DNA of 34,005 nucleotides from Clostridia bacterium. Its GTDB lineage: Bacteria; Bacillota; Clostridia; Oscillospirales; CAG-272. The position numbers and the translations under genes were made by a program. The notes under the pieces were generated by a model. The model worked only from the letters and a program-made list of their open reading frames with translations. It was not told where the DNA came from and did not search any database. Shown here piece after piece: positions 22,324-34,005 of the stretch. Each line of letters begins with the position of its first letter. The first letter of the stretch is position 1. The DNA lies in NCBI GenBank assembly GCA_017462545.1, contig JAFTQX010000008.1, forward strand, positions 1-34,005, in the 5' to 3' direction.

Positions 22324-22835
22324 AAAAACCTCAAGGGTGGCAGCAGCGTTTCGCAGGCGTACAGCAGCACGCCGCAAAGTGTGCCAAATGGCAGCGCGGC
22401 GAATAGCAAAACCGGCAAATAGGAAAATACAGCCACGCCGTACAGCAGTGCGGCGGCCAACAGCTGCCCGATGCCATGTGCCGCAGCGCAGGCAACCGAA
22501 ACACCAATGCGACCAAAGCGTTTTGTAAGCGACAGCAAAACCAGTACGGCAAACGCAAGCATCGCCCCAAACGCCGAAAATAAAAACGAGACGGCAGAGC
22601 CAAAGAGCAAGGAAACCATCAGTACGCGCAAAAGGGAGACGGCAGCCCCCGCTGCGCAGCCGACATGAAAGAAGGCGAACATGATCGCCACATTGGGCAG
22701 CCCAAGCTTTACCCCCGGCAGGGCAAGCGGCAAGGGGACAAGACTCTCCACATAAGACAACAGCAGAGCCAACGCGAGCAGCAGCGCACTGTAGGCCAGG
22801 TGGCGGGTTGAATGCTTAACCGGCGACGGCATCAT
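22320..22835 (-). CDS. Gx transporter family membrane protein
   Basis: A 171-residue protein, hydrophobic throughout with about five membrane segments. The signature SYVESLVPLPLALPGVKLGL followed by PNVAIMFAFF is typical of PF07456, once named heptaprenyl diphosphate synthase component I and now called the Gx transporter family. It resembles ECF S-components. In Listeria a relative (EetB-like) belongs to the extracellular electron transfer locus. The start overlaps the upstream NusG-II gene by about 20 nt; GGGGAGGGG supports ATG at 22835 or 22832. The substrate is unknown. Confidence 0.85.
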   Translation of the reverse strand: MMPSPVKHSTRHLAYSALLLALALLLSYVESLVPLPLALPGVKLGLPNVAIMFAFFHVGCAAGAAVSLLRVLMVSLLFGSAVSFLFSAFGAMLAFAVLVLLSLTKRFGRIGVSVACAAAHGIGQLLAAALLYGVAVFSYLPVLLFAALPFGTLCGVLLYACETLLPPLRFL

Positions 22836-26532: not shown

Positions 26533-28404
26533 ATGTACAAAATTTCTGTTCCTGTTATGAATAAAACCGTCAAACGCGTGGGAAAGGAGCAGACGCTGGC
26601 CGAGCTGCGTCGTTTTGACGCAGAGCGTGTATTTTTGGCGCTGGATTGCTATGAGACAGACGAAGAACGCCGCCGTGAATCTCTTTCTACGCTTGCCGAG
26701 AACTGCCGTTTTTTCAAGGAAAACGGTCTTGAGGTCGGGGCTTGGATCTGGACATTTTGGCTCAAAAGCAATGATAGCTTTCGCTGCATGCGCTCCATCA
26801 AGGGAACGGAGATTTCCGAGTTCATGTGCCCGACAGATGAGAGCTTTGTCAGCTTTGCCTGCGCCTATGCGCAGGATATTGCCCGTTGCGGCGTTGATCT
26901 GATCCAATACGACGACGATTTTCGCTACGGCTGGTTATCCGACGCGCCTGCTTGCTTGTGTGACGGTCACATAGCGGCCATCCGAACGATCACGGGCGAG
27001 GAGGTCACACGCGCAGAAATGGAAAAACACATCCTATCCGGTGAGAAAAACAAATACAGAGATGCGTATTTGCAGGCAAACGGCGATGCCCTGCGCCGGT
27101 TTGCTTCCGCCATTCGTGCGGCAGTCGATCAGGTCAATCCCTCCATCCGCATTGGTGCTTGCTCCTGCATGTCCTCTTGGGATATTGACGGCACAAGCGC
27201 GACAGAAATATCGCACCTGTTAGCCGGCAGCACAAAGCCCTTCACCCGCTTGATCGGCGCTCCCTACTGGGCCCGCACCGGGGATTGGGGACGGCTACAG
27301 GATGTGGTAGAGATGGAGCGCATGGAAAGCGCGTGGACAAGGGATGGCGAGATCGAGATCATGGCGGAGGGCGATGCCTATCCGCGGCCAAGGAGCCAAT
27401 GCCCCGCCAGCTATCTGGAAGGGTTTGACACCGCCATTCGCGCCTCGGGCTGCACAGACGGTATTTTGAAATACGGCATCGATTACCATTCCAACACGGA
27501 TTATGAGACAGGCTACGCCCGTTTTCACGAGAGAAACCGCGAGGTCTATGCAGCCATTGACAAATTATTTGCCGGCAAGCAAAGCAGCGGTGTGCGCGTA
27601 TATGAGCCAATGCACAAGATTGCCGACATGGTGATGCCCACCGCCGTCAACAATCAGGTGAATATTGAAGAGTTTATCTTCTCCAAGGCTGCCCGCACAT
27701 TGGCGCACAATGCAATTCCCACCGTGTATGAGGGAGAAGGCATTTGCGGCATCGTGTTTGATGAAAGCGCAAGAAACCTGCCCCCGGATGCCCTGAAAAA
27801 GGGATTGATCCTCGACATTGCCGCCGCAGAGATCCTTTCGGAGCGCGGCATTGATGTTGGCATTGAGCACATCGGCAAGGCGACCACCGGTGAGTGCGAG
27901 CATTTTATCACGGACAACAATCACATTTCGGCTTGCGGCACGATCGTTTACGATGTAAAGCTGAAGGATGGCGCAGAGGTTTTGAGCGACATGGAGACAC
28001 CCGAGGGCATTGTTCCTATCTCTTACCGTTACGAAAACAAGAGCGGCAACCGCTTTCTGGTGCTGAACATCAACACCCGCGCCAAGCAGGACAATCTGCT
28101 TAAGCACTATGCAAGAAGCGCACAATATGCCGACATCATTCCCTGGCTTGGTGGGAACACGTTACCTGCCTATACCTATGGAAATCCTGCGCTGTATCTG
28201 CAATGCAAAAAGGGGGATGGCAGCATGGCCGTTGGGCTTTGGAATTTCTTTGCTGACCCTGCCCTCTCGCCTACCCTACAGCTGGACGAGGAATACGCCT
28301 CGCTCTCTTGTGTCAACTGTGAGGGGCGCATCCATGGCAAAAGCGTTACCTTAACCGACATCCCCGCCTTTGGTTTTGCCTTCTTTGAGGTAAAGAAGAA
28401 ATAA
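26533..28404 (+). CDS. Putative TIM-barrel glycoside hydrolase-like protein
   Basis: A 623-residue cytoplasmic protein without signal peptide. I cannot assign a named family. Residues 1-360 look like a beta/alpha barrel: alternating strand-helix units, WIWTFWLK, an acidic strand end DLIQYDDDFRYGW (about 137-149), IRIGACSCMSSWDIDG, and MAEGDAYPRPR. Residues about 365-470 (LAHNAIPTVYEG, KKGLILDIAAAEILSERGID) resemble the amidotransferase-like trimerisation domain of GH42-type enzymes. The C-terminus (AVGLWNFFADPALSPTLQLD) is beta-rich. This domain order suggests a carbohydrate-active enzyme, but the acid/base and nucleophile are not proven. It is a monocistronic unit with its own promoter and terminator. 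Confidence 0.6.
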   Translation: MYKISVPVMNKTVKRVGKEQTLAELRRFDAERVFLALDCYETDEERRRESLSTLAENCRFFKENGLEVGAWIWTFWLKSNDSFRCMRSIKGTEISEFMCPTDESFVSFACAYAQDIARCGVDLIQYDDDFRYGWLSDAPACLCDGHIAAIRTITGEEVTRAEMEKHILSGEKNKYRDAYLQANGDALRRFASAIRAAVDQVNPSIRIGACSCMSSWDIDGTSATEISHLLAGSTKPFTRLIGAPYWARTGDWGRLQDVVEMERMESAWTRDGEIEIMAEGDAYPRPRSQCPASYLEGFDTAIRASGCTDGILKYGIDYHSNTDYETGYARFHERNREVYAAIDKLFAGKQSSGVRVYEPMHKIADMVMPTAVNNQVNIEEFIFSKAARTLAHNAIPTVYEGEGICGIVFDESARNLPPDALKKGLILDIAAAEILSERGIDVGIEHIGKATTGECEHFITDNNHISACGTIVYDVKLKDGAEVLSDMETPEGIVPISYRYENKSGNRFLVLNINTRAKQDNLLKHYARSAQYADIIPWLGGNTLPAYTYGNPALYLQCKKGDGSMAVGLWNFFADPALSPTLQLDEEYASLSCVNCEGRIHGKSVTLTDIPAFGFAFFEVKKK

Positions 28405-28410
28405 ACGCAA

Positions 28411-28438
28411 AAGAGCGCCGCTATCAAGCGGCGCTCTT
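28411..28438. terminator. Shared bidirectional terminator
   Basis: An 11-bp stem AAGAGCGCCGC/GCGGCGCTCTT with loop TATCAA, followed by CTTT on the plus strand and preceded by A-rich sequence. It lies between the convergent glycoside-hydrolase-like gene and the GDPD-family gene. Confidence 0.85.
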
Positions 28439-28443
28439 CTTTA

Positions 28444-29184
28444 TCACAGATCTTTCGGGGAAATCGTATTGGTCGTAAACCCGGAAACGTAGGGCAGATA
28501 TTCGTACATCACGGCGGGGTCGTCAATGATCCATACCTCCAGGCGCACGCCGCGCGGCAGACGCCGATTCAGCTCGATCACCTCTTCAACGGGGTGCTTG
28601 GTATAGATCATATTAATGGTGATCGTGTTCAGGTCGGTCTGGTACTTCTCTGCCATGGCAATGATCGGTGAAAGATCCTGCTCGGCCGTGACGAGAGAAA
28701 TTTCAGCCGTCGGATCCCATGCCAGCACACGCTCAATAACAGGCTCTCTGTTGGTCAGCCAGGCAACGTGATCCTCCATTTTATATTTCAGAACAAGGGA
28801 AAACAACGTGTTCCAGCGTTCGTCATCCCACGGATCCAGGTGGTCAATGTAAAGGCCAAGGCCGTTCGTTTTGCAGGTGTAAAGCACCTCGTCAAAGGTA
28901 GCGATTACCTCACCATAATAGCCATAGGTCTTCAGCTCTGCCAAGGTGTGCTCACCAATAACAATGCGGGTTTGGCCGTCATGGCTATCGGTATACGCCC
29001 TGTCGTGACAACAAACGGGGATGTTGTCTGATGTGAATTTAATATCGGTTTCTGCCCATTGAAAGCCCTGCTCTGCCGAGCCGATATAGGACGACACGCG
29101 CGAGTTGCCAAGCCACTGGTCGGTTACCGAAAAGCCCTGGTGGGAGATCATACGAAAGTTTGGGTTGTTGTTAGGATTGATCAT
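28444..29184 (-). CDS. Glycerophosphodiester phosphodiesterase family protein, atypical
   Basis: A 246-residue cytoplasmic protein with a GDPD-type TIM barrel. Recognised elements are SHQG (His15; families usually have HRG), the metal ligands in AETDIKFTSDNIPVCCHD (Glu45, Asp47, His60) and EVWIIDDP near the C-terminus (usually VWTVNDP). Departures from the family are Gln for Arg after the first His, no PENT motif, and YIDHL where ExK is usual. The metal triad is retained, so a phosphodiesterase or lyase on a non-standard substrate is possible. It is transcribed divergently from the phosphoesterase gene, with GAGAGG before the ATG. Confidence 0.78.
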   Translation of the reverse strand: MINPNNNPNFRMISHQGFSVTDQWLGNSRVSSYIGSAEQGFQWAETDIKFTSDNIPVCCHDRAYTDSHDGQTRIVIGEHTLAELKTYGYYGEVIATFDEVLYTCKTNGLGLYIDHLDPWDDERWNTLFSLVLKYKMEDHVAWLTNREPVIERVLAWDPTAEISLVTAEQDLSPIIAMAEKYQTDLNTITINMIYTKHPVEEVIELNRRLPRGVRLEVWIIDDPAVMYEYLPYVSGFTTNTISPKDL

Positions 29185-29328: not shown

Positions 29329-30303
29329 ATGAAAGCCATACCGTCTTATTGGATACCGCACCTCGAAGAAAAGCTGCAAAAAATCAACCGTATCGCCGCG
29401 GAAGGTGTTACGGATTCCTTCATTTTCATTTCGGATATACATTCCGAAAACAATACCCTGCTCTCTCCCGCGCTTGCACAATACATCAAAGAGAAAACCG
29501 GCATTGATCGCGTGATCATCGGCGGCGACCTGATCAATGGAAACAAAGAAAAGGAAAAAGCGCTTGCCGCGATGAATGCCATCCTTGATGAGCTTGCCCC
29601 CCTGCGCCCGTATGTTGTACGCGGCAACCACGACCAGAACACCGACTGGGGTCCGATCACGCCCGAGAATTTCTTTTACGACACCCTCTACCGTGAGCGT
29701 GTGCTGGGCATTGCCGCAAACGTATGCGAACCCGGCAAATTCTATGGTTATCTGGACGTGCCGGAGGCCAAGCTGCGCTACTTCTTCTTGGATACAGGCT
29801 CCTGCTATTCCGAGGCGTTCGGCTCGATGGATGGCAACTACGATTGGGTTGGCGGAAGAACCGCCCCCTACCAGGAGCAGCTGGTCTATCTGAAGGCAAA
29901 GGCAAGCGAGCTTCCCTCTGATTGGGGCATTATTGCCGTGCAGCACATTCTTCTTGGCGGTGGTCTGGTAGACAAGCACCAGATCACGAACATCATCACC
30001 GGGTGTCTTTTGGATCAGTTGGACGAGATTGCCGCCGACCCGAATGCGCCGACGGTGGTCGCAGCATTCTGCGGGCACAACCACCTTGACCGTATGATCG
30101 TCTCCCCCGCCGGCTACCCGGTCATTTCCCTGACCTGCGACGGAGGCGGCAGTTCCTCTTGGGACTGGGACCACAATAACCGCACCCGCACCCCCGGCAC
30201 GACCGAGGAGCAGGCCTTTGATGTGGTACAGATCGACCGCGCAAGCCGCACCATCTACATGACGCGCATCGGCGTCGGTCGGGATCGGAAGTGTAGGTTT
30301 TAA
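29329..30303 (+). CDS. Calcineurin-like metallophosphoesterase
   Basis: A 324-residue cytoplasmic phosphoesterase. The dinuclear-metal motifs are complete: SDIH (Asp36, His38), GGDL (Asp67), GNHD (Asn100, His101), VQH (His206) and GHNH (His250, His252). The substrate is unknown; relatives hydrolyse phosphomonoesters, cyclic nucleotides or nucleotide sugars. Divergent pairing with a GDPD-family gene suggests action on the same phosphodiester metabolites, but that is positional inference. AAGGAG precedes the ATG. It ends at a strong hairpin. Confidence 0.9.
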   Translation: MKAIPSYWIPHLEEKLQKINRIAAEGVTDSFIFISDIHSENNTLLSPALAQYIKEKTGIDRVIIGGDLINGNKEKEKALAAMNAILDELAPLRPYVVRGNHDQNTDWGPITPENFFYDTLYRERVLGIAANVCEPGKFYGYLDVPEAKLRYFFLDTGSCYSEAFGSMDGNYDWVGGRTAPYQEQLVYLKAKASELPSDWGIIAVQHILLGGGLVDKHQITNIITGCLLDQLDEIAADPNAPTVVAAFCGHNHLDRMIVSPAGYPVISLTCDGGGSSSWDWDHNNRTRTPGTTEEQAFDVVQIDRASRTIYMTRIGVGRDRKCRF

Positions 30304-30311
30304 TCAAATAC

Positions 30312-30344
30312 AGAACAAGCCGAGGCATAGCCTCGGCTTGTTCT
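30312..30344. terminator. Bidirectional terminator
   Basis: A 15-bp perfect stem (30312-30326 with 30330-30344), loop ATA, followed by only a weak T-rich tract on each side. It separates the convergent phosphoesterase gene from the zinc-ribbon operon. Confidence 0.8.
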
Positions 30345-30367: not shown

Positions 30368-30802
30368 TCAATCGCCAGCCCAATACAAGGAAATATCGCT
30401 ATACTCCCAACGTCCCCCTCTCATATTATAATTTAGTTGAACTTTTTTCCCGGAAGTACACTCCACCTCTATCGTCATATTTTTCTTATCCAAGCGCGCG
30501 GTAAAATGCTTGCTCTGATACTTGTCCGTATAATCCGCACTATGATAATAAGGATATGTATGCTGTGCTGAATAATAAAAAGAGCCTTCGATTGTCCCTG
30601 TAAGCGGATTATATTGACGAACGTTAAGCACTACCTCTTCTTCAACTTCCAATGCATAACCATAACCGCTGTAGTAGTGCCTTTCCGTGCCTTCAAAGTG
30701 CCCCGTTAAATGGAAAGCCAAATTCAAATGGTAAAGCACTGTAAAAAGAAGTATGGCAACCAATACGACGCTCACAATAAAAACCTTTTGTTTCTTTTCC
30801 AT
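30368..30802 (-). CDS. Single-pass membrane protein of unknown function
   Basis: A 144-residue protein, not recognised. A membrane anchor spans about residues 8-26 (FIVSVVLVAILLFTVLYHL). The remainder is Tyr-rich and presumably extracytoplasmic, with alternating polar residues suggesting a small beta-barrel or sandwich (SGYGYALEVEEEVVLNVRQY, GSFYYSAQHTYPYYH, KNMTIEVECTSGKKVQLNY). It is the last gene of the zinc-ribbon operon. AAGGAG for it overlaps the end of the upstream gene, 8 nt away, suggesting coupled translation. Base composition is AT-rich like the rest of the islet. Confidence 0.72.
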   Translation of the reverse strand: MEKKQKVFIVSVVLVAILLFTVLYHLNLAFHLTGHFEGTERHYYSGYGYALEVEEEVVLNVRQYNPLTGTIEGSFYYSAQHTYPYYHSADYTDKYQSKHFTARLDKKNMTIEVECTSGKKVQLNYNMRGGRWEYSDISLYWAGD

Positions 30803-30810
30803 AGGTCAAA

Positions 30811-32277
30811 TCACTCCTTGGTGGATACACAAGAAAACGAGGCGGCTCTTTTTTTGAAATACCCTTGATTCAGCAGAACGGCAGCAACCGTTATGGCTGC
30901 AAGCAACAGCAACGCGTAAAGCAGTGCGCCTTCTATGTTATCGTTAAATTTCAAACTGCAACGAAGTAACACGTGACTAAAAAGGTTGAGCAAACGCTCC
31001 TGTCTAAAGATCAGACATTCTACCGCCATCTGCCATGCCGAAATTCCGAATGAAACGAAAAAGAATGTCATCAACGAGGAGGGCGCATTTTTTTCAAAGT
31101 GCTCCAAGCGTCTCCGAACAACAAAGGCATATACGGCATCACCAAGATACAGCAAAAGCACGATCGCAACATAGGCGCGGATCATAATTTCATGTCCGCC
31201 TGAGAAAATTGGGTAATAGTACCCTTCGGGATTAACAAGCAAAAACGCATAATAACAGGCTGTAACGCCTCCCGACACAGCGGCCACAAGCAACCCGCAT
31301 GAAACCAAAAAGCGATACCAACCAAAATGAAGCTGATGAGACGGAAGGCCGTTATCACACCCGCAAACGGGACAAAATCTGCCATCAAAAATGCTTTCAC
31401 GACAGCTAATACAATTTCTATTTGCAGCAGGGATCTTACATGCGGCGTCTTCTTCTGCAGTATCATGTATGCCACTTTTAAGCCATAGAACAAAACATAA
31501 GGTACTAAGCAGCGATGTCACGCTCATAATAACAGACGTGACATCTGTGCTGTATTCGTATAGATTGAGCGAGACGATCCAATCGATTAGATTGACCGCA
31601 GAGCAGATCAAAGGAATAAACCAAGTCTTTTGAATGACTTTTGCTCTCGCCTTTAATTCGGGAGAGCAAGCATATATTGTGACCATACATAAGGAAATTC
31701 TGTTTAAAAAAGAAAGCAAAGTGATTGCGGTTATCGAGTAAATCTGAGAGGTCACAGAAATAAAAGTCGATGCTATCATTGTCATAGCTAAGTACTTGTT
31801 CTTTTTATTGCACACAAGCAGTACAATACGAGCAACAGACGGTATCATCGTTAAGAGAAAAGTACTGAAAATCCATTCAAAATGCAGCAATTTTACCAAG
31901 TACATCCCCTCTGCTACCAAATTTACCATCAAAAAAAGCGCGCTCAAAAGAGCATAGACATACCCCGTCTTGTTTTGCACAGCTCTTTTCGGCTTTTTAT
32001 TCTCCGAAGCATGTTTTCTTTGACCGCAATTCGGGCAAAAATTCCCCGTGTATTCGGTGGCACACGCAGGGCAATGATATGGCTTGGTTTTTGTGTGAAT
32101 AGAATTATCGGCACCGCAAAATGAACAAAATGGGCCATCGGATAACTCGTGTTGGCACTGCGAGCAAACACACAGCGTTTCCGTTTCTGCCACGGTGACA
32201 GGCTGAAAGTTTTCATGACCGCAGAAAGGACAGAAGCGCCCCTCACTGTATTCTTTTTCACAGTTCTTACATTTCAT
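30811..32277 (-). CDS. Multi-zinc-ribbon polytopic membrane protein
   Basis: A 488-residue protein of unknown function. Three zinc ribbons lie at the N-terminus (CKNC/CPFC, CSQC/CSFC, CPAC/CPNC, all before residue 85). They are followed by a first block of about five or six membrane segments (105-275). A fourth zinc ribbon (CISC/CPVC, about 290-310) and a second membrane block complete it. The second half, from the fourth ribbon on, resembles the whole 250-residue neighbour (32604-33356): both have W-Y-[KR]-F-L-V after the ribbon, then RxxLxx[FY]xK[DN]AP and a terminal LNxxYFxxR. It therefore looks like a duplication with an added N-terminal module. ATG has GAGG upstream. No enzymatic motif is seen. 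Confidence 0.8.
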   Translation of the reverse strand: MKCKNCEKEYSEGRFCPFCGHENFQPVTVAETETLCVCSQCQHELSDGPFCSFCGADNSIHTKTKPYHCPACATEYTGNFCPNCGQRKHASENKKPKRAVQNKTGYVYALLSALFLMVNLVAEGMYLVKLLHFEWIFSTFLLTMIPSVARIVLLVCNKKNKYLAMTMIASTFISVTSQIYSITAITLLSFLNRISLCMVTIYACSPELKARAKVIQKTWFIPLICSAVNLIDWIVSLNLYEYSTDVTSVIMSVTSLLSTLCFVLWLKSGIHDTAEEDAACKIPAANRNCISCRESIFDGRFCPVCGCDNGLPSHQLHFGWYRFLVSCGLLVAAVSGGVTACYYAFLLVNPEGYYYPIFSGGHEIMIRAYVAIVLLLYLGDAVYAFVVRRRLEHFEKNAPSSLMTFFFVSFGISAWQMAVECLIFRQERLLNLFSHVLLRCSLKFNDNIEGALLYALLLLAAITVAAVLLNQGYFKKRAASFSCVSTKE

Positions 32278-32304
32278 CGCATATTCCTCATAAATCGTTA
32301 GACA

Positions 32305-32559
32305 TTACTTTTTGAGTTTTTGCATAAGATCGTACTTTAAGCGCACAAAGCACGCCAAAAAGGCAAAAAAGGCATTTGAAATAGCGCGTCCCATTCGCTT
32401 TAACCCAAGAAGGACACGATCGCCCCATTGAGGATCGGAGCTTTGAACTCTTGGCTGTTGTACTTGAGGCGTTGGTCGAACGCTATGTATCCTTGCACCA
32501 CATTGGGAACAAAAAATATGGTCTTTCTCCACCTCTGTGCCGCATTGATGACACTGCAT
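32305..32559 (-). CDS. Small zinc-ribbon protein
   Basis: An 84-residue protein. One zinc ribbon lies at the extreme N-terminus (CHQC/CSQC, residues 3-20), then a Pro/Gln-rich linker. A C-terminal amphipathic or hydrophobic helix (about 58-72, ISNAFFAFLACFVRL) flanked by basic residues could bind the membrane. Second gene of the divergent operon, with AAGGAG before its ATG. It shares only the ribbon with its neighbours. Function unknown. Confidence 0.75.
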   Translation of the reverse strand: MQCHQCGTEVEKDHIFCSQCGARIHSVRPTPQVQQPRVQSSDPQWGDRVLLGLKRMGRAISNAFFAFLACFVRLKYDLMQKLKK

Positions 32560-32603
32560 AATATATTCTCCTTATACCTAAGTTTGGGTAATCGCAACAG
32601 AAT

Positions 32604-33356
32604 TCAGTTGATAAACAAGTCAGAACGATTTTCAAAATAGTTATAATTCAGCACAGCCATAACAAAGGCAGTAATCATGCCAATGATGCTGCTACCGACA
32701 GAAATGCCCATGATGCTATCCAAAACAAGTTGGCCAAAGGACAGCAGAGCAGAAGCAACATAGAGACCAACAATATAACGCGGCGCATCCTTTTTATATT
32801 TCACTAGTTTAGAACGCGTAAACAACGCCAGAGCAGCAAAGGCTAAGTACATGATTGCAAAAAGCATAAACGAGGCAAATGTGGTGAGGAAAAACGGCAT
32901 GTCTATCTCCTCCACTTGAGGAAACAATTCATCAAGATCACCATGAAGCAGCCCCACCCAATAAATAGATAAGTAATAACCAAAATTATATAAAGCGCTA
33001 ATTGCGGCAGCAAATAGAGAAAACCAAACCAAAAATTTGTACCATTTCATGCCGCGAGTGCCGATGTTGTGAAAGGACGCTTTTGGATTATCATATCCGC
33101 AAACGAGGCAAAACCGTTCATGCGTCATGTTTGCACCGCAATTTAGGCAGACGCGATGAGGGGTATGGCGTTTATTGTTTGTTTCAGGATGATCTACATC
33201 ACAACCGCAAGCAGGACAAAAATGACCGTGTTCAATTTTCTTTCCACAAGCTGGACAGGTTTTAGCCTCTGTTTGGGCGGGTGCAAGGTTGTCAAAGCCG
33301 CAAGAAGGACAAAATTGACCTTCAAAAAATTCCTTTTGACAGTTAGAACATTTCAT
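32604..33356 (-). CDS. Triple zinc-ribbon membrane protein
   Basis: A 250-residue protein of unknown function. Three zinc ribbons at the N-terminus (CSNC/CPSC, CPAC/CPAC, CLNC/CLVC within residues 3-90) are followed by about four membrane segments, a basic cytoplasmic loop with RSKLVKYKKDAP, and a terminal LNYNYF. It is paralogous to the C-terminal half of the 488-residue neighbour. It is the first gene of the operon and is read divergently from the XRE regulator; its promoter -35 touches the palindromic operator. AAAAGGAG lies 8 nt before the ATG. Confidence 0.8.
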   Translation of the reverse strand: MKCSNCQKEFFEGQFCPSCGFDNLAPAQTEAKTCPACGKKIEHGHFCPACGCDVDHPETNNKRHTPHRVCLNCGANMTHERFCLVCGYDNPKASFHNIGTRGMKWYKFLVWFSLFAAAISALYNFGYYLSIYWVGLLHGDLDELFPQVEEIDMPFFLTTFASFMLFAIMYLAFAALALFTRSKLVKYKKDAPRYIVGLYVASALLSFGQLVLDSIMGISVGSSIIGMITAFVMAVLNYNYFENRSDLFIN

Positions 33357-33405
33357 GATGAACTCCTTTTACAGTTTTTTGAGTTACACTTCTCAACTCA
33401 CGCCC

Positions 33406-33434
33406 ATTATATCACAATATGAGATTAAAGTCAA
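33406..33434 (-). promoter_or_regulatory. Promoter of the zinc-ribbon operon
   Basis: On the minus strand, -35 TTGACT (33429-33434), 17-bp spacer, -10 TATAAT (33406-33411). The -35 overlaps the start of the AATATCTC operator half-site, so a bound regulator would block polymerase. Confidence 0.8.
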
Positions 33435-33453
33435 TATCTCACCACGAGATATT
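33421..33453. promoter_or_regulatory. Palindromic operator between divergent genes
   Basis: Perfect inverted repeat AATATCTC (33433-33440), spacer ACCAC, GAGATATT (33446-33453), with a third half-site GAGATT at 33421-33426. It overlaps the -35 of the leftward promoter and abuts the -10 of the rightward one. This is a typical arrangement for an autoregulating HTH repressor. Binding by the adjacent XRE protein is inference. Confidence 0.7.
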
Positions 33454-33454
33454 T

Positions 33455-33460
33455 TATAAT
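33455..33460 (+). promoter_or_regulatory. -10 element of the XRE gene
   Basis: TATAAT 22 nt before the ATG at 33483, with GGGGGGAG between. No good -35 at 16-18 bp; that region is the operator, so this promoter may be weak or need an activator. Confidence 0.5.
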
Positions 33461-33482
33461 AAATAAAAAAAGGGGGGAGTTC

Positions 33483-33698
33483 ATGCGGCTTAAAGATTTG
33501 AGAGAAGATCACGACCTAACGCAAAGCGTGGTGGCAAACTATTTGCACATTCGGCAGAATACTTACTCCCAATACGAAAATGGTCAACGACAAATTCCCA
33601 TTCCTCTGCTTATAGCACTAGCAAAATATTATGGCACATCCGTAGATTATATTTTAGAATTGACAGATGTAATAGAACCTTACCCGAAGCAAAAATAA
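33483..33698 (+). CDS. XRE (Cro/CI) family HTH regulator
   Basis: A 71-residue protein that is essentially one DNA-binding domain (residues 3-60). It has the XRE pattern LKDLREDHDLTQSVVANYLHI, then RQNTYSQYENGQRQIP in the recognition and following helices, and LIALAKYYGTSVDYILEL. There is no sensor or dimerisation domain, so it probably dimerises through the HTH and responds via a partner or its own level. GGGGGGAG sits 3 nt before the ATG. It is divergent from the zinc-ribbon operon across 126 nt containing the palindromic operator, and is its likely regulator. Confidence 0.9.
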   Translation: MRLKDLREDHDLTQSVVANYLHIRQNTYSQYENGQRQIPIPLLIALAKYYGTSVDYILELTDVIEPYPKQK

Positions 33699-33738
33699 AA
33701 AGCGCATTCCTTTTGCAAGGAATGCGCTTTTTATTTTT
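33691..33738. terminator. Shared bidirectional terminator
   Basis: A 22-bp perfect stem (33691-33712 with 33717-33738) around loop TTGC, with AT-rich ends that supply a T-tract either way. It lies between the convergent XRE and GGGtGRT genes. Confidence 0.92.
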
Positions 33739-33744
33739 CGGATA

Positions 33745-34005
33745 TTACTTCATCGCCTCTTCGACAGCAACTGCAACCGCGACGGTCATACCAACCATCG
33801 GGTTGTTACCTGCGCCGATCAGACCCATCATCTCTACGTGAGCGGGCACGGAGGAGGAGCCTGCGAACTGTGCGTCGGAGTGCATACGACCCATGGTATC
33901 GGTCATGCCGTAGGAAGCAGGGCCTGCAGCCATGTTATCGGGATGCAGGGTACGGCCGGTACCACCGCCCGAAGCAACCGAGAAGTAGTTTACGCCGTTT
34001 TCAAC
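33745..34005 (-). CDS. GGGtGRT family protein, C-terminal part
   Basis: The last 86 residues of a gene that begins beyond the window. It contains the naming motif SGGGTGRTLHPDN, then MAAGPASYGMTDTMGRMHSD and VGMTVAVAVAVEEAMK. GGGtGRT proteins are a conserved Clostridia/Bacteroidia family without proven function, often near NifU-like iron-sulfur scaffold genes. The Gly-rich loop suggests nucleotide or phosphate binding (inference). The stop is TAA at 33745. Confidence 0.88.
   Translation of the reverse strand, partial: VENGVNYFSVASGGGTGRTLHPDNMAAGPASYGMTDTMGRMHSDAQFAGSSSVPAHVEMMGLIGAGNNPMVGMTVAVAVAVEEAMK

What the first reader, a model, noticed from the sequence alone, without database searches (positions are those of the whole stretch)
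30368..33698. AT-rich islet: XRE regulator divergent from an operon of zinc-ribbon membrane proteins
Four co-directional genes (triple-ribbon membrane protein, small ribbon protein, four-ribbon polytopic protein, single-pass Tyr-rich protein) are paired with a minimal XRE regulator. By eye the stretch is clearly lower in GC than the rest of the window, and no gene in it except the regulator has a known function. It lies between two strong bidirectional terminators, so it is a self-contained cassette with signs of recent gain. A membrane-stress, defence or signalling module built on ribbon-ribbon contacts is possible but only inferred.
Basis: partly seen in the sequence, partly recalled or inferred. 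Interest (0 to 1): 0.72.

Follow-up and report, generated by a model that had tools for sequence, protein, structure and literature searches.

The report
Portable XRE switch driving zinc-ribbon proteins
A small repressor-like gene and a very conserved DNA switch sit in front of an apparently acquired set of unknown membrane proteins; the same switch occurs in related bacteria in front of quite different genes, often ones for membrane or exported proteins.

Summary
The islet is real: five genes, 3.3 kb, GC 41.7% against 54.3 +/- 1.8% to its left. A 71-aa XRE regulator is divergent from g1 (three ribbons, 4 TM), g2 (one ribbon), g3 (3+1 ribbons, about 8 TM) and g4 (one TM). The set was not found again (g1 in 58, g3 in 390, g4 in 244 other genomes).
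What is general is the switch: two 19-bp palindromes 25 bp apart with the operon's -35 between them. A DNA-only search found 27 more sites, in 15 of 390 other class and 11 of 68 other genus genomes, reversed-pattern control zero. Ten were known from the XRE comparison; 17 were new. An XRE of 61-76% identity starts 16-47 bp away at 25; one of the others is a second site of the same XRE, one a contig end. The cargo varies; once, in the same genus, it is another triple-ribbon membrane protein.
g1 and g3 share a 4-TM 'WYKFL' domain, distantly like DUF2569. The islet abuts the 3' end of GGGtGRT, where at least four relatives carry extra copies of that gene end. Function is unknown; no defence link was found.

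The parts
33483..33698 (+). XRE regulator, 71 aa, one HTH_3 domain, recognition-helix signature QNTYSQYENG
33434..33452 (.). operator O1, ATATCTC-N5-GAGATAT, between the operon -35 and the XRE -10
33409..33427 (.). operator O2, ATATCAC-N5-GAGATTA, 25 bp from O1, overlapping the operon -10
33406..33434 (-). operon promoter: -35 TTGACT (33434-33429), 17-bp spacer, -10 TATAAT (33411-33406)
33455..33460 (+). likely -10 box (TATAAT) of the XRE promoter
   Evidence: sequence
32604..33356 (-). g1, 250 aa: three zinc ribbons + 4-TM WYKFL domain
32305..32559 (-). g2, 84 aa: one zinc ribbon + one short hydrophobic segment
30811..32277 (-). g3, 488 aa: three ribbons + about 5 TM, then a fourth ribbon + a second WYKFL domain homologous to g1
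30368..30802 (-). g4, 144 aa: N-terminal TM + about 110-residue domain probably outside; no convincing relative found
33691..33738 (.). hairpin with T-tracts on both strands, between XRE and GGGtGRT
30312..30344 (.). 15-bp hairpin between g4 and the metallophosphatase
33745..34005 (-). 3' end of the host GGGtGRT gene (PF14057), right flank; the contig ends here
29329..30303 (+). metallophosphatase gene (PF00149), left flank

Best explanation
The islet is an acquired cassette run by a local repressor switch. The XRE protein binds two palindromes, O1 and O2, 25 bp apart: O2 overlaps the -10 of the divergent operon, O1 touches its -35 and stands just before the -10 of the XRE gene. It so silences the zinc-ribbon operon and its own gene until an unknown signal lowers or disables it (the sites belonging to this XRE: strongly supported by conservation; binding, repression and autorepression: inferred). 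Released, the operon makes a membrane assembly: g1 and g3 as polytopic scaffolds with ribbons in the cytoplasm, g2 as a small ribbon adaptor, g4 as an anchored protein facing outward (topology inferred from hydrophobicity and charge; assembly inferred). It most likely adapts or protects the cell envelope, as many of the other, unrelated cargos of the same switch look membrane-bound or exported (inferred). Regulator and operator form a portable module in the class, apparently Clostridia, with varying cargo (shown by comparing neighbours; the route of exchange is not).
For: The pair of sites stands upstream of 9 of 12 XRE relatives with QNTYS in the recognition helix and 1 of 17 without (Fisher p = 1.9e-4; signature chosen after seeing the rows, rows related). 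A DNA-only search found the pair in 16 of 391 class and 12 of 69 genus genomes, own genome included in both, reversed-pattern control 0. Of the 27 sites other than the window's, 25 have an XRE of 61-76% identity in the same orientation 16-47 bp away. Ten of the 27 were in the set that suggested the pattern; of the 17 new ones 15 have such an XRE, one is the second site of a known XRE and one lies at a contig end. In 28 of 28 sites, window included, the best divergent -35 lies at one position between the operators (5/6 or better in 27), with a -10 at 17 bp in 26 and a TATAAT-like box before the XRE in 28. First divergent gene membrane or exported in 12 of 13 (class) and 5 of 10 (genus) against 92 of 253 background, p = 2.8e-4. 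Cargo genes poorer in GC than their neighbours in 19 of 23. A second triple-ribbon cargo at L292. Compositional break and comparison with G028.
Against: In the window's own genus only 5 of 10 cargos look membrane-bound or exported, so an envelope role is a tendency, not a rule. The predictor was my own hydropathy script. Two sites have no divergent protein gene within 350 bp though the contig goes on (L263, L287) and one has a tRNA gene first (L267). L121, with the QNTYS signature, has no site at 11/14 or better; the single-site score also reached 12/14 once in a control stretch (L125) and in L142, which lacks the signature. L144 has the pair without the signature. Binding, repression, signal and function are untested. 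The XRE has no sensor domain. No structure could be predicted. The four genes were seen together nowhere else.
Confidence: 0.62

Rival explanations
1. The cassette is an anti-phage or superinfection-exclusion module: the XRE keeps a costly membrane system off until phage entry, and the ribbon membrane proteins then block entry or damage the membrane.
For: Acquired-looking islet beside a likely hot spot; the XRE resembles phage repressors (PHROGs transcription regulators; phage records, all below 60% identity); membrane products without a family.
Against: No PADLOC match for g1-g4 and only HTH-level matches for the XRE, best 31.5 bits. Among 20 other window proteins four matched PADLOC models over shared domains only, which I read as housekeeping genes. 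A stricter form of the operator pattern, which 20 of 27 known loci meet exactly, gave 0 hits in viral contigs. Many cargos of the switch look like lipoproteins or secreted proteins by eye.
Confidence: 0.15
2. A type II toxin-antitoxin-like pair: the XRE is the antitoxin and a membrane protein the toxin.
For: Small XRE autoregulators are typical antitoxins (recalled); the XRE has weak matches to PezA, HipB and HigA models, all below cut-off.
Against: The XRE is divergent, not co-transcribed with g1; the same regulator stands before many unrelated proteins; antitoxin matches are far below cut-off.
Confidence: 0.08
3. The cargo is neutral or decaying DNA: an acquired islet kept silent by its repressor, with no present benefit to the cell.
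For: Patchy distribution; g4 without a convincing relative; cargo varying between genomes.
Against: All five frames are open; the CxxC pairs of all eight ribbons of g1-g3 are present; the promoter boxes keep their places in 28 sites.
Confidence: 0.12

Closest known systems
XRE/Cro-CI type small repressors (Pfam HTH_3, PF01381)
   Same: Single HTH domain above the curated cut-off; divergent, probably autoregulatory layout as in phage Cro/CI switches (recalled).
   Different: A clade marked by QNTYS in the recognition helix with its own conserved two-site operator and changing cargo; matches in phage and plasmid records at E 1e-5 are all below 60% identity; no PDB sequence match at E 1e-5.
DUF2569 (PF10754; E. 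coli YdgK is recalled as a member)
   Same: Membrane proteins of unknown function; 11 of 50 WYKFL members match at E up to 0.01, best 3e-5.
   Different: The one bit score printed is below cut-off (22.5 against 26.5); g1 itself did not match; WYKFL proteins mostly carry an N-terminal zinc ribbon.
TcaA-like zinc-ribbon membrane proteins (NF053815)
   Same: N-terminal zinc ribbon followed by a membrane segment (layout of TcaA recalled).
   Different: g2 scores 15.2 bits against a cut-off of 550 and only over residues 2-33.
Gene-3'-end integration hot spots (tRNA, guaA and the like; recalled)
   Same: Other DNA beside the 3' end of a host gene, with extra copies of that end in relatives.
   Different: The target here is the GGGtGRT protein gene; the window's own islet has no second copy of the gene end and no integrase.

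Membership tests
XRE/Cro-CI small repressor | HTH_3 domain above the Pfam cut-off | tested here: met
   55.9 bits, cut-off 23
XRE/Cro-CI small repressor | palindromic sites at its own and a divergent promoter | tested here: met
   two 19-bp palindromes; promoter boxes at fixed places in 28 sites
XRE/Cro-CI small repressor | binding and repression | not testable with these tools
   needs protein-DNA and transcript measurements
QNTYS-XRE switch (group defined here) | paired operator at 25 bp with an XRE close downstream | tested here: met
   25 of 27 further sites, 15 of the 17 that were new; the two others are a second site of one XRE and a contig end
DUF2569 | profile match above the curated cut-off | tested here: not met
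   no match for g1 or g3 at E 0.1; L161 22.5 bits, cut-off 26.5
Type II toxin-antitoxin | toxin co-transcribed with the XRE antitoxin, known toxin family | tested here: not met
   divergent layout; no toxin family in g1-g4
Known anti-phage defence system | match to a defence model in the cargo | tested here: not met
   0 PADLOC families for g1-g4 at E 0.1
Integrative element | integrase inside the islet and flanking att repeats | tested here: not met
   no integrase family; no second GGGtGRT end in the window; the contig ends 0.3 kb past the islet
Integrative element | position at a site used by other islands in relatives | tested here: inconclusive
   extra gene-end copies in 4 of 20 relatives fetched, three of them fetched because one search had shown a second fragment; integrase fragment in G028
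Prophage | structural or packaging genes | tested here: not met
   PHROGs on the five genes: only regulator matches and unknown families over the ribbons

The most novel reading that the evidence does not exclude
A portable genetic switch: one clade of minimal XRE repressors moves between Clostridia with a fixed two-operator divergent promoter and picks up unrelated, mostly envelope-directed cargo, much as cassettes do. In the zinc-ribbon versions the cytoplasmic ribbons of the cargo themselves report membrane or metal state back to the XRE, closing a sensing loop that the sensorless regulator lacks.
Probability: 0.22. Interest if true: 0.75.

Novelty: new variant of a known kind. Interest (0 to 1): 0.5.

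Why it matters
Small XRE regulators are common and mostly unassigned (71 of 291 class genomes have a relative at E 1e-12; 'mostly unassigned' is recalled). A DNA signature that finds the operator of one clade, with no reversed-pattern match in the 391 class and 69 genus genomes scanned, makes regulator, promoter and cargo directly testable and lets one list probably silenced, probably acquired genes of uncultured species. It also gives a handle on a widespread ribbon-plus-4-TM protein family whose membrane part has no clear Pfam family, and points to the GGGtGRT gene end as a possible integration site.

Tried and rejected
Rejected: that the four-gene set is a conserved system (g3 gave no relative in genome contigs, and g1 none at full length in 58 other relatives; g4 had only two marginal matches in 244 other genomes). 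That the XRE beside a WYKFL gene in L224 is the same switch: its intergenic DNA has no site at 11/14. That this XRE generally sits beside ribbon genes, which I expected from memory: among the 30 XRE loci (1.5 kb each side) only the window's own has ribbon membrane genes next to it, and L138 has a 109-aa frame with one CxxC pair; L292, found later, is the second true case. That the cassette is viral or plasmid-borne: no relative of g1, g3, g4 or the WYKFL profile in viral contigs, none for the islet DNA in plasmids, none for g1 in phages; one 45% XRE relative in a viral contig. That it lies in a defence island.

Led nowhere: the first operator scan did not turn minus-strand loci and was redone. 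PDB searches for g4, the WYKFL profile and the XRE gave nothing usable; g4 also has one weak NCBIfam match, 20.2 bits against 170. Paper searches, listings only, no paper opened: operator strings 4 papers, unrelated by title; zinc ribbon + XRE + three more terms 0; XRE + divergent promoter + three more terms 0; DUF2569 1; GGGtGRT 17, by title partly proteomics and partly papers on other subjects; TcaA 1; ydgK 5.

Rows dropped or biased: in the cargo count 4 of 27 sites without a divergent protein gene within 350 bp (L263, L265, L285, L287; L265 and L285 lie near contig ends) are left out of n = 23; L267, whose first divergent feature is a tRNA gene, is kept as 'no'. In one search, 12 of 80 WYKFL loci had no gene picked and were read; L180 and L207 were scored on wrong frames. 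GGGtGRT regions: 20 fetched of 33 other genomes with a match; G028, G450 and G456 were taken because one search already showed a second fragment there, so 4 of 20 is not a rate; 4 of the 20 have under 2.5 kb downstream. One search used the 30 loci that one search returned, not all its matches.
Full report
The window is the whole of contig C56 of a 2.0-Mb, 78-contig assembly, 81% complete, so nothing beyond 34005 can be read here. The class is not named by the tools; two same-class genomes, G345 and G184, hold contigs whose records are titled Clostridia bacterium and uncultured Ruminococcus sp., so I take it as Clostridia. Their composition stands far off the host: GC 0.417 against 0.543 +/- 0.018 in 271 windows of the same size to the left, GC3 0.40 against 0.63. 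High GC returns in the piece of GGGtGRT at the right edge (0.58), so this is an islet in host DNA rather than a contig of another organism.

The proteins. g1 has three C4 ribbons, then four hydrophobic segments. g3 is composite: three ribbons and about five TM, then a fourth ribbon followed by a second copy of the g1 membrane domain (30% identity over 65-214 of g1; alignment). This domain, called WYKFL here after its start, belongs to a wide family. A three-row profile found it in 11 of 391 class genomes, own included. A scan of one genome per species found 249 pattern stretches, confirmed 92 and kept 80, titled mostly as Clostridia, Oscillospiraceae, Lachnospiraceae, Erysipelotrichaceae and a few Coriobacteria or Olsenella, largely from gut or rumen. 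Of the 80, 60 show one N-terminal ribbon, three show two, none three, and 17 none, some of these through truncated or wrongly chosen frames. The family mostly stands alone, sometimes in tandem (L191 three genes, L213 two); an XRE lies within three genes at 4 of the 68 loci scored. DUF2569 matches 11 of 50 members at E up to 0.01; the one score printed is below cut-off, so it is a distant relative at best. g2 is a ribbon with a short hydrophobic stretch. g4 has an N-terminal TM and a domain probably outside; in 245 genomes only the own copy and two marginal matches (E 0.003 and 0.01) appeared. Charge counts place the ribbons of g1 in the cytoplasm: the loop after TM2 has 5 K+R in 11 residues, the loop after TM1 none in 25.

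The four-gene set elsewhere. g1 in 59 relatives gave the own genome and three others, over residues 2-62, 2-51 and 2-135. g3 in 391 class genomes gave 29 with a match, own included; in the others the matches lie within residues 1-185, except G345, which matches 316-423, the WYKFL part. g3 gave no relative in genome contigs, and g1, g3 and g4 none in viral contigs. The set was thus not seen a second time in these searches; g2 was not searched by itself, and many genomes are incomplete.

The switch. Between the XRE and g1 lie O2 (33409-33427) and O1 (33434-33452), two 7-5-7 palindromes with like half-sites, 25 bp apart. The operon -35 (TTGACT) lies between them, its -10 is overlapped by O2, and a TATAAT for the XRE follows O1. 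Among 29 XRE loci outside the window returned, best sites of 12/14 or better stand upstream of 12; the control stretch on the other side of the gene reached 12/14 in one (L125), and one of the 12, L142, looks unlike the rest. The pair at 24-26 bp, with at least one site of 12/14, stands upstream of 9 of 12 with QNTYS in the recognition helix and 1 of 17 without.

I then searched for the DNA alone, both sites at a fixed period with one mismatch allowed. In the class 16 of 391 genomes have it, own included; in the genus 12 of 69, own included. The reversed pattern gave no match in either. One pair per genome is the rule; G473 has two, on either side of a single XRE, and G362 shows a further overlapping match. 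Ten of the 15 other class sites were in the set that had suggested the pattern (L120, L122-L129 and L131); the other 5 and all 12 in the genus were new. Of the 27 sites other than the window's, 25 are followed by an XRE of 61-76% identity in the same orientation after 16-47 bp; the two others are the second site of the G473 XRE (366 bp, opposite strand) and a site 55 bases from a contig end. Among the 17 new ones this is 15 of 17. Over all 28 sites the best divergent -35 stands at one position, 5/6 or better in 27; a -10 at 17 bp in 26 and at 15 bp in two; a TATAAT-like box before the XRE in 28 (the -10 and XRE boxes were best-of-range picks, so less strict than the -35). This is strong evidence that the XRE acts on this DNA and on the divergent promoter. 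That it represses is inferred from the sites lying on the promoter.

The cargo. The divergent gene varies. By eye there are lipoprotein-like, signal-peptide and polytopic proteins; L290 is a DUF6809 protein. Some pairs look alike (L268 and L273, L269 and L270, L290 and L291). Membrane or exported first genes are 12 of 13 in the class set but only 5 of 10 in the genus set, against 92 of 253 other genes nearby (p = 2.8e-4 overall, by my own hydropathy script). Cargo genes are poorer in GC than neighbours in 19 of 23, by more than 0.05 in 14. In G472, a member of the same genus, the cargo is a 569-aa protein with three ribbons and about eight TM in a stretch of GC 0.37 against 0.48 around it. Its membrane part does not match WYKFL convincingly; the ribbon part aligns with g1 (35% over 94), as ribbons tend to. 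So the layout of a divergent XRE with a triple-ribbon membrane protein occurs at least twice in this genus.

The place. In G028 the flanks match the window (95% over 26981-29184, 72% over 29423-30342, 95% over the GGGtGRT end), but 13.5 kb of other genes lie between them, with a 94-bp copy of the GGGtGRT end 11 kb downstream and a fragment with a phage-integrase SAM domain. In 4 of 20 relatives fetched (G028, G450, G456, G023) one or two direct copies of the last part of GGGtGRT, 50-94 bp, lie downstream; three of the four were fetched because one search had shown a second fragment, so this is no rate. The segment -230 to -130 gave no copy in 20, and -700 to -600 one 26-bp match in 19. This suggests an integration site at the end of GGGtGRT. 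The window's own islet has no such copy, so how it came in is open.

Function. No member of the operon has a known function; no defence, toxin or phage family matched g1-g4 beyond ribbon-level or sub-threshold scores. Of 20 other proteins of the window 16 had no PADLOC match at E 0.001; the four that did (PDC-M51A, MzaB, mad8, E1-E2 models) match over shared domains and look to me like HemW, MutL, MutS and a ThiF-like protein (names recalled). My choice, an envelope-adapting membrane assembly under a silenced, inducible switch, rests on topology and on the tendency of the other cargos. It is the weakest step. The tie between regulator and operator is the strong step.

Known or new. XRE repressors with divergent promoters are a known kind (recalled). 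The operator, its tie to one recognition-helix clade and the varying cargo were not found in the paper searches I ran, which cover open-licence papers only. I therefore call it a new variant of a known kind.

Noticed in passing
window:33745-34005 and relatives L099, L100, L101, L104: The 3' end of the GGGtGRT gene may be an integration hot spot in this genus: four relatives carry one or two direct copies of its last part (50-94 bp) downstream.
   Followed up: partly
window:29184-30303: Identity to G028 falls from 95% (26981-29184) to 72% in the metallophosphatase, so the variable segment may begin left of the islet.
   Followed up: no
L294 (G473): One XRE gene flanked by two operator pairs, each in front of a different gene (a lipoprotein-like 714-aa protein and a 409-aa protein).
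   Followed up: partly
L101, L109, L118, downstream of GGGtGRT: Small proteins of the four-helix-bundle type (L101 is a 23S_rRNA_IVP match; the others look alike by eye) in the same place.
   Followed up: no
L191:4995-7196 and L213:2035-3141: Tandem arrays of ribbon + WYKFL membrane proteins (three and two genes), suggesting local duplication of the family.
   Followed up: no
window:26533-28404: 623-aa protein with no Pfam match at E 0.1; the part compared, from 26981 on, lies in a stretch 95% identical to G028.
   Followed up: no
window:22001-23000: Marked AT skew (0.34) at normal GC, with a weak 16-bp repeat at 22397-22427.
   Followed up: no
window:9488-9542: Near-perfect 55-bp palindrome, probably a terminator.
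   Followed up: no
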